The position numbers and the translations under genes were made by a program. A DNA stretch of 64,000 bases from Gammaproteobacteria bacterium (lineage in GTDB: Bacteria; Pseudomonadota; Gammaproteobacteria; Steroidobacterales; Foliamicaceae), in assembly GCA_009844425.1 (NCBI GenBank), contig VYBN01000017.1:1-64000 (forward strand), in the 5' to 3' direction. Every line of letters starts with the position of its first letter. The first letter of the stretch is position 1. The notes under the pieces were generated by a model that ran no database searches, was not told the DNA's origin, and worked only from the letters and a program-made list of their open reading frames with translations. Positions 188 through 48,045 of the stretch are shown here, piece after piece.

Positions 188-739
188 TTACATCAGGCCG
201 GCTTCGAGCTGGGCGGCCTCGGACATCATGCTCTGGTTCCAGGGCGGGTCGAAGACGAGTGCGACGGCCACGTCGTCGATAGTGGGGATCAGGGCGATCT
301 TCTCGCGCACGTCCTCCACCAGGATTTCGCCCATGCCGCAGCCGGGGGCGGTCAGCGTCATTTCCACGGCCACGTCCCGCCTGCCGTCGTCGCGGCGCTT
401 GACCTCGCAGGAATACACGAGGCCGAGGTCGACGATATTGACCGGGATTTCCGGGTCGTAGCAGGTCTTCATCTGTTCCCATACCAGCGCTTCCACGTCG
501 GAGTCGCCCGCGTTGGCCGGCAGTTTCGGCGGTTCTGCGGGCTTCTTGCCGAGCGCGCCGGCGTCGGCGCCGGCGATGCGGTACAGCCAGCCGTCCACAT
601 AGACCGTAAAGCTGCCGCCCAGCGACTGGGTGATGAACACGAGCTGTCCGGCGTGGAGTTGCGCTTCCTCGCCGGCGGGAATGATGACCGCCCTGCAGTC
701 GCGGGTCAGGGTGACGGGCTCGCTCTGGCCGCCGAACAT
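188..739 (-). CDS. sufT: SufT-like (DUF59/MIP18 family) Fe-S assembly protein
   Basis: C-terminal DUF59 pattern (DPEIPVNIVDLGLVY...MTLTAPGCGMGEILVEDVREKI) at the end of a suf operon; start MFGGQSEPV at 739. Confidence 0.85.
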   Translation of the reverse strand: MFGGQSEPVTLTRDCRAVIIPAGEEAQLHAGQLVFITQSLGGSFTVYVDGWLYRIAGADAGALGKKPAEPPKLPANAGDSDVEALVWEQMKTCYDPEIPVNIVDLGLVYSCEVKRRDDGRRDVAVEMTLTAPGCGMGEILVEDVREKIALIPTIDDVAVALVFDPPWNQSMMSEAAQLEAGLM

Positions 740-744
740 GGAAC

Positions 745-1272
745 TTACTCGGTGCTCACGGTGTCCGGCTCGCCGTCCAGCGCCGCGGTAAAGGTCTTCC
801 AGGGCAGGGTGACACAGCGGATCCGCGAAGGGTAGGCGCGAACGCTGCCCAGCGCGACGATTTCGCCCAGATCGCCCAAGCCGTTGCCGGCGCCGGGTTC
901 GAATGCATCCAGGACCTTCTCCGCCTGCTGCTTCGCCTGATCCGCGGTCTCGCCGTCGAGAATTTCGGTCATCATCGATGCCGAAGCCAGGCAGATCGCG
1001 CAGCCGGCGGCCTCGAAGCTGATCTCGGCGATGACCCCTGGGAGCGAGGACGTCCCGTCCTCGCGGGAGGGCGGGATGCCCTCCCTCCCAGGCTGCTCGC
1101 TCCCGCTTTGCTCTTCCCCGGGCGTGCGCAGGTATACGGTGACCTTGTCGCCGCAGAGGGGATTGAAACCCTCGGCCACCCGGTCGGGCTCGTCCATGGC
1201 GTGGAAGTTGCGCGGCGAACGGCAATGCTCCAGCACCGTGCGCTGATAGAGACTTTGCAGTTCGCTGCTCAT
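745..1272 (-). CDS. sufU: SufU/IscU-like Fe-S scaffold protein with an in-frame repeat-derived insertion
   Basis: Scaffold Cys motifs NPLCGDKV, CAICLASASMMTE and RCVTLPWKTF; follows sufS. Confidence 0.88.
   Translation of the reverse strand: MSSELQSLYQRTVLEHCRSPRNFHAMDEPDRVAEGFNPLCGDKVTVYLRTPGEEQSGSEQPGREGIPPSREDGTSSLPGVIAEISFEAAGCAICLASASMMTEILDGETADQAKQQAEKVLDAFEPGAGNGLGDLGEIVALGSVRAYPSRIRCVTLPWKTFTAALDGEPDTVSTE
1034..1113 (+). repeat. Palindromic repeat family B, copy 1, inside sufU
   Basis: CCCCTGGGAGCGAGGACGTCCCGTCCTCGCGGGAGGGCGGGATGCCCTCCCTCCCAGGCTGCTCGCTCCC: two hairpins inside outer complementary ends. Confidence 0.85.
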
Positions 1273-2531
1273 CGGGCCTGGCCCAACAGCTTGCGCGCGG
1301 TCCCGATCCCGGCGGCAAGACGGTCAATCTCTTCTTGGCTGTTGTAGAAGGCGAAAGACGCGCGGGAGGTGCCGGGCACGCCGAAGCGGTCCATCAGCGG
1401 CATCGCGCAATGGTGGCCGGCGCGAATGGCGACGCCTTCATGGTCCAGGATGGTGCCCAGGTCATGCGGATGAATGCCGTCGATCACGAATGACACAACC
1501 GCGGACTTCGGCGGCGCTGTGCCGATGATCTTCAGCCCCGGGACATGCTGCAAGCGCTCCGTCGCGTACTCCAGCAGATCGTGCTCCAGGGCCGCGAGGC
1601 GTTCGAGCCCGTGCCCGGCTAGGTAGTCCATTGCCGCGCCCAGGCCGACGGCCCCGGAAATATTGGGGGTGCCGGCCTCGAACTTGTGCGGCGGATCGTT
1701 GTAGGCGGCGCCGTCGAATCGGACTTCGAGGATCATCTCGCCGCCGCCCAGAAACGGCGGCAGCTCGTCCAGCCAGGGCTTGCGCGCGTAGAGCGCGCCT
1801 ATCCCGGTGGGGGCGTACATCTTGTGGCCCGACAGCGCGTAGAAGTCGCAGCCCAGCTCCTGCATGTCGAGCGGAATATGCCCGGCGGCCTGTGCGCCGT
1901 CGATCAGGATGGTCGCGCCCGCGCGCCGCGCCAGTTCGCAAATCTCCGCAACCGGATTGATAACGCCCATGGCGTTGGACACATGGGTTACCGCCACGAG
2001 CCGTGTCCTGCCGCCGATCAGTCCGGCCAGTGCGGCCATGTCGAGCGCGCCCGAGTCCAGTACCGGCGCCACCCGGATTTTCGCGCCGGTGCGCTCGCAG
2101 AGCTGCTGCCACGGCACGATGTTGGAATGGTGCTCCATGCCCGTGAGCACGATTTCCGATTTCGCATCCATGCGGCCGTCCATGCAGCGCGCCACCAGAT
2201 TGATGGACTCGGTGGCCCCGCGGGTAAAGACGATCTCGTCGGCGGATGCGGCGTTCAACCAGCCGCGCGTGCGTTCGCGCGCCCCCTCGAAGGCCGCCGT
2301 CGCCCGGTCGGAACGGGCATGCACGCCCCGGTGCACGTTGGCGTGCATCTCGACTTCGTAGGCGGTCAGTGCGTCCATGACCGCCTGCGGCCGCTGGGTG
2401 GAAGCCGCGTTGTCCAGGTAGGCGAGGGGACAGCCATGCACGGTCGTGGCCAGGCCGGGGAAGTCCGCACGCAGGGCTTGCGCCGACAGCGGCTCCTGGA
2501 CTGAGGCAAGGCGTGCGGTGGCGCTGCTCAT
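1269..2531 (-). CDS. sufS: Cysteine desulfurase SufS
   Basis: SufS family sequence: YLDNAASTQRPQAVMDAL, NVHRGVHARSDRAT, SGHKMYAPTGIGALY, RAGHHCAMPLM. Confidence 0.95.
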   Translation of the reverse strand: MSSATARLASVQEPLSAQALRADFPGLATTVHGCPLAYLDNAASTQRPQAVMDALTAYEVEMHANVHRGVHARSDRATAAFEGARERTRGWLNAASADEIVFTRGATESINLVARCMDGRMDAKSEIVLTGMEHHSNIVPWQQLCERTGAKIRVAPVLDSGALDMAALAGLIGGRTRLVAVTHVSNAMGVINPVAEICELARRAGATILIDGAQAAGHIPLDMQELGCDFYALSGHKMYAPTGIGALYARKPWLDELPPFLGGGEMILEVRFDGAAYNDPPHKFEAGTPNISGAVGLGAAMDYLAGHGLERLAALEHDLLEYATERLQHVPGLKIIGTAPPKSAVVSFVIDGIHPHDLGTILDHEGVAIRAGHHCAMPLMDRFGVPGTSRASFAFYNSQEEIDRLAAGIGTARKLLGQAR

Positions 2532-6246: not shown

Positions 6247-7713
6247 TCAGGGATTGCGCTGGAATCGGATAGTGGCCAGATACTTGCCGTTCACAACACC
6301 GTTGACGATGTCCGCATCGCCGATTTGCGCCGTCAGCTGTCTTATGGGTTGGTGTGGATTGGTTGCCGTTCCGCTGAGGCTGAATCGGTTGCCGGTTTCC
6401 GTTCCCGCATCCCAAACCGCGAGATTCATATGACCGGTGTCGCCGACCCAGCCCCCGTGCTTGTCAAGCAGCGGGAATTCACTCAAGCCCACAAACCAGT
6501 CGGGGCTCGGCGCCACCATGCTGGCGAACGTAAACAGCGGCATGGCCCGGCTCAGGTTCAATTCGAACACGCTCGTGCCCGTACTGCCGGTGCCGCCGCT
6601 GATTACCGGCGAAGCCGCGGTCATGTTCGACATGGCTTCGCCAATTTCGTTCAGGAATTGCCCGGTCTGTCCCAATTCCGCCACATTCTCCAAGCCTGCG
6701 CTCGCCAATTCCCCAGGCATCCAGAGATTCGCCCGCCCATTCGTTGCCGCGCCCACCAGGGTTGTGAAATGGGACGAAGCGGGAACGGAGTCATGAATCT
6801 CGCTGGTCCACCGGGCGGTGAACGTGACCGTGTAACTGGCCTCGGACACGAACCGATTCCCGTCACGCGCCTTCTCGTGACAGGAAAAGTTGTCGAAAGC
6901 GCCAGTGGCCGACAGGTTCATGTTCATCAATTCAAGCCCGAAGTGGGGGGAGAGGTACAAGCTGGCCTGTCCCTGCCATGCGCCGCCAACCCGGGTTGCC
7001 AGTTCCTGCCCGCTGACCCAGATATGCTCTTTCGGCCCGAGCGAGGGAAGCAGCGCGCTGTTGGCAAGCCCGATGATGTTGCCGCCGGCATCGCGCAGCG
7101 TTCCGCGCACATCGGATATCGCGTCGAATCCCGTGTTGATGAAGCGCACGAATGTGCGGTCCGGCTGATCCATGCCCGCGATGTTATGCACCGCACCCTC
7201 GGCAACGCAGTTGACGTTGGTGGGCGCCGCGCCCGGACTGCTGCGCAGCTTGACCATCGCCACAAAGGGCGCGCCATCAATATCGGACATTATCTCCAGC
7301 ATTGCCGGCTGAACCCAAGCGCCAACGCCGAAGCGCTCTTCCAGTTCTGAGGATGTCAGAACCAGACGGCCCTTGGCGTTGACAGGCAGGTCGCTCAACG
7401 CCTTGCCTGACTCGCCGAGCCGCGCCCCCTGAGTGTTATACAACGTTCCGGTAAACCGTAACTCGTAGTCGGAGGTGTTGATGATATGCAGCTCCACCGA
7501 AGGCCCCAAAGGGCTTGCTGCCGTGCTTGTCATCAGGTAGGCGCGAACCGGCTGCTGCGCCCACCCCGCCTGCAGGCTCGCAACCGACATCGTCAATGCC
7601 CAAAGCAGGGCCCAAAGCTGGCTGCCGCTGCGCCCCGCGCTTTGCCCGTTACCGATCATCCCCGATCCCATCTGAAGACCAAATGATTCTATCTCAATGG
7701 GATTCAGTCCCAC
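6247..7713 (-). CDS. Hypothetical secreted protein
   Basis: Long ORF with signal-peptide-like segment (LWALLWALTMSVASLQAGWAQ); start uncertain, no family recognised. Confidence 0.6.
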   Translation of the reverse strand: MGLNPIEIESFGLQMGSGMIGNGQSAGRSGSQLWALLWALTMSVASLQAGWAQQPVRAYLMTSTAASPLGPSVELHIINTSDYELRFTGTLYNTQGARLGESGKALSDLPVNAKGRLVLTSSELEERFGVGAWVQPAMLEIMSDIDGAPFVAMVKLRSSPGAAPTNVNCVAEGAVHNIAGMDQPDRTFVRFINTGFDAISDVRGTLRDAGGNIIGLANSALLPSLGPKEHIWVSGQELATRVGGAWQGQASLYLSPHFGLELMNMNLSATGAFDNFSCHEKARDGNRFVSEASYTVTFTARWTSEIHDSVPASSHFTTLVGAATNGRANLWMPGELASAGLENVAELGQTGQFLNEIGEAMSNMTAASPVISGGTGSTGTSVFELNLSRAMPLFTFASMVAPSPDWFVGLSEFPLLDKHGGWVGDTGHMNLAVWDAGTETGNRFSLSGTATNPHQPIRQLTAQIGDADIVNGVVNGKYLATIRFQRNP

Positions 7714-13188: not shown

Positions 13189-13296
13189 GCCTTCTATTCG
13201 CATCCCTCTTCCGGGAGACGCATGAATACATCCCTGTAGCTTGGTTCCGCCATCCCTGGCTCACACACTCCCGGAAGAGGGATGCGAATAGAAGGC
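13189..13296. repeat. Variable-arm hairpin element, copy 1
   Basis: Perfect 29-bp inverted repeat (GCCTTCTATTCGCATCCCTCTTCCGGGAG) around a 50-nt centre ACGCATGAATACATCCCTGTAGCTTGGTTCCGCCATCCCTGGCTCACACA shared with copies at 39288 and 55717. Confidence 0.92.
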
Positions 13297-25167: not shown

Positions 25168-27450
25168 ATGCGAAAGATACTGTTGGTCCTTACCGCCTTC
25201 TCGTTGCAACTGGTGATTGCGGAATCCGCCGTCGCGCAGGAATCGACCGTGGTGCTCGAAGAGATCGTCGTCACCGCGCAAAAGCGCGAAGAATCGCTCG
25301 CCGACGTGGGCATTGCGGTTGACGTTGTAAGCGGCGACCGGCTGCGCGAGGCCGGCGCCGTGTCGCTGATCGACGTTGCCCGCTACTCTCCGGGCCTCAA
25401 CATCCAGACGCCGTTCGGGGAATTCGGCTATCCGCTGATCGCGATCCGCGGCGTGAATACCGACGGGTTCATCGAAACGCTGCCGCAGTCGACCGGCGTG
25501 TATGCCGACGGCGTTTACGTATCGCAGCCGCCCATGCAGGCGTTCCGGCTGCTGGATCTGGAGCGAATGGAAGTGCTCAAGGGGCCGCAAGGGACCATAT
25601 ACGGCCGCAACACCATCGCAGGTGCGATCAATCTCATCTCGAAACGCCCCACGTTCGAGCCGGAAGGCTACGCCACGGTGGGATTCGGCCGCTACAGCCG
25701 CGCCTCGTTCGAGGGCGCCTACGGCGGACCCATTTCCGACACGGTCGCCGGGCGGTTTGCCGTGAAGGTCCTTCGCCAGACGGACGGCCCGCTGACCAAC
25801 ATGCATCCGGACAGGGACGATGGCGGCGAGCTGGATCAGCTTATGGCCAGAGGCTCACTGCTGTTCCGGCCCGGCGACGACGTCGAAGTGCTGGTCCGGG
25901 TCTATGCCGGACGCGACGATTCGGACGTCTGGCCATGGGCGACCATACCCGCGGGTCAGGACATCGACGGCGACGGCATTCCGGACCGGGTCTGTCCCGA
26001 ATATGCGCGCGGAGACGTTCCCGCCGCCCAGATGAATTGCCTGGCGCGGGACCCCTTTGTCAGCGGCGACACTTTCAACGACACCGATGGCGACCCCTAC
26101 ACTATCAACCAGAACTTCATCGGCGAACACGCGTACAAGTCCAGCGGTATTTCCGCGGAGGTGAACTGGGACCTGGGCGCAAGAACGGTAACGTCAGTGA
26201 CCGGCTGGGACGACTTCGAGCGGCACGACGTGCTGGATGAAGATGCAGGCCCGACCGTGGCGCTGGACGACGTGCGCAAGTCGGACGTGTCGCAGTTCTC
26301 GCAGGAGGTTCGCATCGCGTCGAACGCCGGCGAGGGCCTGCAGTGGCTGGCCGGCCTTTACTACTCTTCCGACGAACTGGAAGGCGATCCGGCCTTTGAC
26401 TCGGGCGGCCGGCAGGACTTCTCGGTGCTGGAAACCGACACCCTCGGCCTGTTCGGGCAGGTCGAGTATCCGCTGGCGGACAATCTGGTCGTGACCGTCG
26501 GCGGCCGCTGGACGGACGTGGAGCGCGATTTCTACTACGAAACGACCGGATTTTTTGCCGCCCCGGAATTGCAGGCGGGAGCGTCCAGCACCTTCTCGGA
26601 CAGCGATTACTCGGCCAGGCTGGCGCTGGACTGGAGCGTAAACGAGGACACGCTGGTGTACGCGAGCATATCCCGCGGATTCAACGCCGGCACCTTCAAC
26701 AGCCAGTTCCTGGCGACGGTGGATAACCTCGAACCGACGAAATCGGAATCCCTTACCGCCTACGAGGTGGGTCTGAAGTCAACGCTCGCCGGCGGCCGCG
26801 CCAGCGTCGAGGCGGCGGTCTATTTCTATGACGCGACCGACCCGCAGGTGGTGGCGGTCGAGCCTCTGAGCCTGATCTCGGCCAATTTCCTGATCAACGC
26901 CGACGATTCGCAGATGCAGGGCGCCGAACTGCAGCTTCGGGCCCTCGCGACCGATTGGCTGGAGCTGAGTTTCGGCGCAGCTTACATCGACAGCGAATAC
27001 GGCAATCTCATCACCTCCATTGCCGGCACGGGCACGGGCAGTCCGTATCCCGACAACGCACCGGTGTTCGGTTCCACGCTGGCGGACCTCACCGGCAACC
27101 GCATTCCGAACACGCCGGAACTGAGCATCAATTCCGCGGCCACGGTGCAATGGCCGGTGAGCGCGGGGTGGACCTTCATGGGGCAGCTGGATTTTCTCTG
27201 GGAAGACGACATCCCGCGTGACCTGCGCGCCTCTCCGGCGCTGTACTCCGAAGCCCACATCGACGTGGACCTGCGGCTGGCGCTGCAGTCCACCGACGGC
27301 AAGTGGGACGCCGCCTTCTGGGTGCGGAACCTGACCGACGAGACCTACCTCACCGAAGCGTACGAAGTGCTCGGATTCGGCTTCTACATCGCGGCCGGCA
27401 ACTACAACTACCCAAGGACCTTCGGGCTCGAACTGACCCGTACCTTCTAG
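25168..27450 (+). CDS. TonB-dependent receptor
   Basis: TonB box-like EEIVVTAQKREESLADVGIAVDVVSGDRL, plug motif LKGPQGTIYGRNTIAGAINLISKRP, C-terminal beta-barrel ending in F. Confidence 0.96.
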   Translation: MRKILLVLTAFSLQLVIAESAVAQESTVVLEEIVVTAQKREESLADVGIAVDVVSGDRLREAGAVSLIDVARYSPGLNIQTPFGEFGYPLIAIRGVNTDGFIETLPQSTGVYADGVYVSQPPMQAFRLLDLERMEVLKGPQGTIYGRNTIAGAINLISKRPTFEPEGYATVGFGRYSRASFEGAYGGPISDTVAGRFAVKVLRQTDGPLTNMHPDRDDGGELDQLMARGSLLFRPGDDVEVLVRVYAGRDDSDVWPWATIPAGQDIDGDGIPDRVCPEYARGDVPAAQMNCLARDPFVSGDTFNDTDGDPYTINQNFIGEHAYKSSGISAEVNWDLGARTVTSVTGWDDFERHDVLDEDAGPTVALDDVRKSDVSQFSQEVRIASNAGEGLQWLAGLYYSSDELEGDPAFDSGGRQDFSVLETDTLGLFGQVEYPLADNLVVTVGGRWTDVERDFYYETTGFFAAPELQAGASSTFSDSDYSARLALDWSVNEDTLVYASISRGFNAGTFNSQFLATVDNLEPTKSESLTAYEVGLKSTLAGGRASVEAAVYFYDATDPQVVAVEPLSLISANFLINADDSQMQGAELQLRALATDWLELSFGAAYIDSEYGNLITSIAGTGTGSPYPDNAPVFGSTLADLTGNRIPNTPELSINSAATVQWPVSAGWTFMGQLDFLWEDDIPRDLRASPALYSEAHIDVDLRLALQSTDGKWDAAFWVRNLTDETYLTEAYEVLGFGFYIAAGNYNYPRTFGLELTRTF

Positions 27451-42771: not shown

Positions 42772-42833
42772 GCCTGGGGCGGAGGGCGTCCCGCCCTCCG
42801 GGAAAGCGAGACGACCTCGCTCCCAGGAGCGGA
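42772..42833 (-). repeat. Palindromic repeat family B, copy 3 (inverted)
   Basis: Reverse complement CCTGGGAGCGAGGTCGTCTCGCTTTCCCGGAGGGCGGGACGCCCTCCGCCCC aligns with copies 1 and 2. Confidence 0.8.
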
Positions 42834-47659: not shown

Positions 47660-48045
47660 AGAAGGTCATCGCAGTCGCCGCAGTCATCGGCCTGGCTGTG
47701 GGCCTGACCTGGGCCGCCGAACAGGTGGGCGGCTGGTTAGGTTTCACTCAGCAGGACGGGACCGTCGAGGACACCGCATCCGACAATACGAGCGCCCCCG
47801 GGAACGAGGCCATACCTCCTGGGGGGGAGGGCGTCCCGCCCTCGATTGAAGCTTCCGCCGATTCTCCAGCCCAGGGAGAAGACGGGTCTCCCGCACAGCC
47901 GGAACTGTCCACCGAAGTCACCTCGATCGAAGAGGACCTGGCCCGCATTGAGGAAGCGCTGGGCAGCGATGAGGTACTGGAGGAGTTCACGCCGTCGGAG
48001 CCCCTTTCGGCGGACAACCCGGTAGTCTGGCCCACCGACATCTGA
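47656..48045 (+). CDS. Hypothetical exported protein containing a family B repeat remnant
   Basis: N-terminal hydrophobic segment; ATGA overlap with previous gene; acidic disordered middle. Confidence 0.6.
   Translation: MKKVIAVAAVIGLAVGLTWAAEQVGGWLGFTQQDGTVEDTASDNTSAPGNEAIPPGGEGVPPSIEASADSPAQGEDGSPAQPELSTEVTSIEEDLARIEEALGSDEVLEEFTPSEPLSADNPVVWPTDI
47815..47846. repeat. Palindromic repeat family B, partial copy 4, inside a CDS
   Basis: CTCCTGGGGGGGAGGGCGTCCCGCCCTCGA contains the GGAGGGCG-CCGCCCTC hairpin; encodes PPGGEGVPPS. Confidence 0.65.

What the first reader, a model, noticed from the sequence alone, without database searches (positions are those of the whole stretch)
1034..1113. Palindromic repeat inserted in frame in sufU, adding about 25-30 residues
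The scaffold sequence ...GDKVTVYLRTP / IAEISFEAAGCAICLASASMM is interrupted by GEEQSGSEQPGREGIPPSREDGTSSLPGV, whose DNA is a double-hairpin repeat found elsewhere in the window. The insertion is at an expected beta-turn between conserved scaffold blocks. This parallels the coding-region palindromic elements known in Rickettsia, here in an essential-type Fe-S gene.
Basis: partly seen in the sequence, partly recalled or inferred. Interest (0 to 1): 0.7.

Follow-up and report, generated by a model that had tools for sequence, protein, structure and literature searches.

The report
Palindromic REP repeat inside sufU gene
In a group of bacteria known from genomes assembled out of marine sponges, a short hairpin-forming DNA repeat present in about 200 units per genome has landed inside the only gene for an iron-sulfur scaffold protein, where it is read through as an extra floppy loop; this is a clear new case of a known kind of event, repeats becoming pieces of proteins.

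Summary
SufU (window 745-1272, minus strand) carries a 56-bp head-to-head pair of hairpin repeats (1037-1092), read in frame. In 91 SufU homologues outside the genus the spacing across this turn is always 16-17 residues; here it is 42, a net gain of about 26. About 200 units of the repeat occur in the genome (reversed-pattern control 0), and it is almost confined to this genus.

SufU is the only NifU_N gene in each of nine genus genomes. Its cysteines are kept and its core is under purifying selection, so the gene works with the insert. The nine genomes form a series at this turn: REP pair, single REP, a loop with only borderline REP signal, and expanded loops with no detectable repeat; none shifts the frame.

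The same repeat sits in frame at about ten of 96 sites examined, including modC, birA, valS, lpd and a uracil-DNA glycosylase, with empty or decayed orthologous sites in relatives. No Y1 (RAYT-type) transposase was found in the genus.

Best reading: an untagged REP/REPIN family, mostly intergenic, tolerated as a disordered passenger in surface loops. In-frame REPs and Rickettsia palindromic elements are already described, so this is a well-documented new member of a known kind.

The parts
745..1272 (-). sufU: SufU/NifU_N iron-sulfur scaffold, 175 aa with the insert; cysteines C40, C91, C153 kept
   Evidence: Pfam NifU_N in two stretches; PDB SufU/IscU hits; invariant columns
1033..1119 (-). 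Extra loop, residues 52-80; net gain about 26 aa over 91 non-genus homologues
1037..1092 (.). REPIN: two REP units head to head, 56 bp (29 of the 33 head-to-head dimers measured are 55 bp)
1037..1062 (+). REP unit 1, CCTGGGAGCGAGGACGTCCCGTCCTC, perfect 7-bp stem
1067..1092 (-). REP unit 2, CCTGGGAGGGAGGGCATCCCGCCCTC; its strand is the coding strand, read PGREGIPPS
1269..2531 (-). sufS cysteine desulfurase (class V aminotransferase); stop overlaps the sufU start (ATGA)
   Evidence: Pfam Aminotran_5; junction
188..739 (-). FeS_assembly_P (DUF59/SufT-like) gene just downstream
   Evidence: Pfam PF01883
16165..16190 (+). Another REP unit at the 5' end of a gene; about 59-65 bp present here and absent in all seven orthologous loci compared
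42773..42827 (.). Another REPIN, between genes by the codon model
47818..47843 (+). REP unit read in frame (PGGEGVPPS) in a 148-codon ORF (129 aa from its ATG); REP-like versions at the same place in five relatives

Best explanation
The feature is one copy of a genus-specific REP/REPIN family: 26-bp hairpin units with a CCTGGG head, often paired head to head as a 55-bp dimer. It inserted in frame into the beta-hairpin turn between two SufU strands. Because the element is nearly stop-free in all six frames and codes for a Gly/Pro/Ser/Glu-rich peptide, an in-frame copy at a surface turn adds a disordered loop without breaking the scaffold, so selection lets it stay. Most insertions inside genes are presumably purged, which leaves the family mainly intergenic. 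Surviving coding copies then shrink, gain extra units or erode by in-frame changes. Shown: repeat identity, in-frame coding, conserved and purified core, single-copy gene, and presence, partial or empty alleles across species at several genes. Inferred: that the loop is translated in the cell, that it is a neutral passenger, and how the element moves.
For: Genome-wide repeat: 201 units against 0 in the control. Genus-restricted: 0-4 units in 49 genomes of other families. Hairpins kept by compensatory changes across 29 dimers: 30 cells changed on both sides against 11.4 in shuffles. Coding: NifU_N split at the insert; only NifU_N gene in all nine genomes; core dN 0.02-0.05 against dS 0.19-0.41 among the six closest species. 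Allelic series with no frameshift: loops of 9 to 31 residues, REP pair in four species, single REP in two. Disorder at a turn: pLDDT about 55 in an otherwise SufU-like model (target TM 0.90 to 2qq4). Stop-free: 3% of element frames hold a stop against 22% in shuffles. Same thing in other conserved genes, with empty or reduced orthologous sites: modC, birA, valS, lpd. Only about 10 of 96 clusters are intragenic, although about 76% of the sequence is coding by the model (udg).
Against: No proteomics or Ribo-seq. No clean pre-insertion sufU allele exists in the genus, so the insertion event itself is inferred from outgroups. G004 and G008 have expanded loops without repeat similarity. No mobilising enzyme was found. 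Most of the genomes are metagenome assemblies.
Confidence: 0.85

Rival explanations
1. The loop has been recruited: the inserted residues are selected for a protein role, such as contact with SufS, a partner or a regulator, beyond mere tolerance.
For: The loop is kept expanded in all nine genus members (+4 to +26 residues) and in none of 91 outsiders. Frame 0 (PGxEGVPPS) is used by about 6 of 8 forward-read coding copies, a weak preference counted after the fact.
Against: Length and sequence vary strongly between close species while the core stays 90% or more identical. Low predicted order. The same peptide appears in unrelated proteins.
Confidence: 0.1
2. The element acts at RNA level: the hairpin in the suf message pauses ribosomes or tunes stability or termination, and coding is incidental.
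For: The transcript region folds 3.2 sd below shuffles. REPs are thought to act as RNA elements (PMC3733652). It lies inside a tightly packed gene cluster.
Against: The hairpin is not conserved at this locus: G002/G007 keep one mismatched unit, G005/G004/G008 none. No Rfam family reaches its cut-off.
Confidence: 0.12
3. sufU is broken or mis-assembled here; the repeat is an assembly error or the gene is decaying.
For: Repeats are common misassembly points, and most of these genomes are metagenome assemblies.
Against: A related 56-bp pair sits at the same place in separate assemblies G001, G003 and G006. Purifying selection, kept cysteines and sole copy.
Confidence: 0.02

Closest known systems
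Intragenic REPs of the GTAG and CGTC super-families (Di Nocera, De Gregorio, Rocco 2013, PMC3733652)
   Same: 20-40 bp palindromes, many head-to-head dimers, mostly intergenic, some in frame inside conserved genes including tRNA synthetases and repair genes, dimers coding 20-30 residues; CGTC REPs also lack a dedicated transposase
   Different: Here the unpaired end is CCTGGG, neither GTAG nor CGTC; a different genus; sufU was not seen in the parts of the paper read (its supplementary gene list was not available); a within-genus allelic series is shown here
Rickettsia palindromic elements (RPE), Ogata et al. 2000, as described in PMC10969869
   Same: Palindromes inserted in frame in unrelated metabolic genes
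   Different: RPEs are about 150 bp in that account and often genic; ours are 26/55 bp, G+C-rich and about 90% outside genes
REPINs with RAYT transposases (for example in Pseudomonas)
   Same: Head-to-head pairs of REP units forming one longer hairpin, high copy number
   Different: No Y1_Tnp gene in any of nine genus genomes, including the one held as a single contig

Membership tests
REP / REPIN elements | Short (20-40 bp) imperfect palindrome in high copy number, dispersed | tested here: met
   26-bp unit, 201 units at 3 mismatches or fewer, control 0
REP / REPIN elements | Head-to-head dimers (REPIN) | tested here: met
   33 head-to-head dimers among the first 48 clusters, 29 of them exactly 55 bp
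REP / REPIN elements | Stem kept by compensatory change | tested here: met
   30 both-side changes against 11.4 in shuffles; the two short stems 98% paired
REP / REPIN elements | Mostly extragenic | tested here: met
   About 10 of 96 clusters intragenic against about 76% coding by a codon model (udg)
GTAG REP super-family | Unpaired GTAG (or variant) at one end | tested here: not met
   Head is CCTGGG in the unit consensus
GTAG REP super-family | RAYT (Y1 transposase) in the genome | tested here: not met
   PF01797 in 0 of 9 genus genomes; positive in 23 of 49 relatives of other families and in E. coli
CGTC REP super-family | CGTC at one unpaired end | tested here: not met
   CGTC occurs inside the hairpin (stem and loop), not at the end
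Rickettsia palindromic elements | In-frame insertion in unrelated protein genes | tested here: met
   sufU, modC, birA, udg, valS, lpd
Rickettsia palindromic elements | RPE size (about 150 bp) and sequence | tested here: not met
   55-bp elements; sequence similarity to RPE itself not tested
MITE | Terminal inverted repeats with target-site duplication | tested here: inconclusive
   CCTGGG/CCCAGG ends present; no consistent duplication at the sites compared
SufU scaffold | NifU_N fold with three conserved Cys and SufS partner gene | tested here: met

The most novel reading that the evidence does not exclude
A REP family spreads without a Y1 transposase, perhaps by copying into sites that already resemble it (lpd carries GAGGGCG exactly where REP sequence appears), and repeatedly seeds the same loops of essential proteins in different species, making it a running source of new in-frame loops.
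Probability: 0.2. Interest if true: 0.65.

Novelty: new member of a known kind. Interest (0 to 1): 0.42.

Why it matters
It is a well-resolved natural series of a selfish repeat entering, shrinking in and fading from essential-type proteins (SufU, valyl-tRNA synthetase, dihydrolipoamide dehydrogenase, ModC, BirA) among close species. That makes the question of how DNA repeats become protein segments testable by comparison, and it shows such a family flourishing with no recognisable RAYT.

Tried and rejected
No exact match in viral contigs; in plasmids only one weak hit, Skermanella at 78%. Rfam gave only sub-threshold chance matches. A target-site duplication was looked for at empty/filled pairs and not found consistently. 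G004 and G008 sufU loops were tested for hidden REP similarity: none (219 and 270 of 500 shuffles as good); G005 was borderline (42 of 500).

Full report
What was checked. The ORF at 745-1272 on the minus strand is SufU. Two NifU_N stretches and the solved SufU/IscU chains leave residues of about 54-76 unaligned. The DNA there, 1037-1092, is two 26-bp hairpin units head to head.

More than chance. The genome has 101+100 units of the pattern at up to three mismatches and none of the reversed pattern. The strand folds far below shuffles as DNA (z -6.4). Across 29 same-length dimers from the genome the two short stems are 98% paired and show compensatory changes well above shuffles.

Is it an insertion? 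In 91 SufU homologues outside the genus, spacing over this turn is 16 or 17 residues without exception; here it is 42. AlphaFold places the insert between strands 42-49 and 83-89 with low confidence (about 55), on an otherwise good SufU fold.

Is the gene alive? SufU is the only NifU_N gene in each of nine genus genomes. The three cysteines are invariant among 37 homologues. Among the six closest species core dN is 0.02-0.05 and dS 0.19-0.41, with G002 and G007 identical. The gene overlaps sufS by ATGA and precedes a DUF59 gene.

The series inside the genus. Loop lengths run 31, 21, 21, 28, 14, 14, 31, 9 and 13 residues in G000, G001, G003, G006, G002, G007, G004, G005 and G008. REP similarity is strong in the first six, borderline in G005 and absent in G004 and G008 (G007 has the same sequence as G002). 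All four REP pairs in sufU are 56 bp, while 29 of 33 pairs measured in this genome are 55 bp, which suggests shared descent of the sufU insertion.

Other coding copies. modC has the pair in three species, a reduced in-frame remnant 42 bp shorter in two, and nothing in four. birA has a single REP here, a pair at the same position in G005, and empty sites in six (the ninth sequence is masked). The N-terminal linker of a uracil-DNA glycosylase carries it too. valS carries three tandem in-frame units here, two in G006 and one in three species. lpd carries REP sequence here and in G006, with a similar eroded stretch in G004. A UbiH-like monooxygenase, an O6-methylguanine methyltransferase and an ABC auxiliary protein have spanning copies by codon model and Pfam only. 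In all, about 10 of 96 clusters are inside genes, whereas about 76% of this sequence is coding by the model, so genes are strongly avoided. For the first 48 clusters the binomial probability of five or fewer is 2e-19 (an approximate figure, since the test for a genic copy is strict).

Why it can be tolerated. Only 3% of element frames contain a stop, against 22% for shuffles of the same composition. The usual reading, PGxEGVPPS, is rich in turn-forming residues.

How it moves is unknown. No Y1_Tnp gene was found in nine genus genomes, although the same search finds it in 23 of 49 relatives of other families. The repeat is practically confined to the genus, whose named members are gammaproteobacterial MAGs; the sponge link rests on their isolate codes and my own knowledge.

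What is known. In-frame intragenic REPs, dimers coding 20-30 residues, same-site insertions in related species and REP families without a transposase are all described in PMC3733652; Rickettsia palindromic elements are reviewed in PMC10969869. This case therefore joins a known kind, as an untagged, RAYT-less family.

Noticed in passing
window 13189-13296: A different element: a perfect inverted repeat with 29-bp arms (GCCTTCTATTCGCATCCCTCTTCCGGGAG) enclosing about 50 bp, present in this genome and G001 and absent from the other orthologous loci compared; MITE-like.
   Followed up: partly
L242 (valS), L250-L258 (lpd): In-frame REP copies in valyl-tRNA synthetase (tandem units, copy number varies by species) and dihydrolipoamide dehydrogenase (REP sequence where relatives have a similar native GAGGGCG stretch).
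   Followed up: yes
L153, L154 (modC in G007, G003): Near-identical in-frame remnants in two species, although G007 has a sufU identical to that of G002, which keeps the full element in modC; suggests recombination between species.
   Followed up: partly
L177, about 6389-6435 (position 26389-26435 in the joined G001 stretch): REP units placed just before a stop codon give a gene a new C-terminus in G001 and G002 (shorter in G006), with empty sites in G007 and G005.
   Followed up: partly
L257 (lpd in G008): The lpd match in G008 contains one internal TAA stop, either a real break or an assembly error.
   Followed up: no
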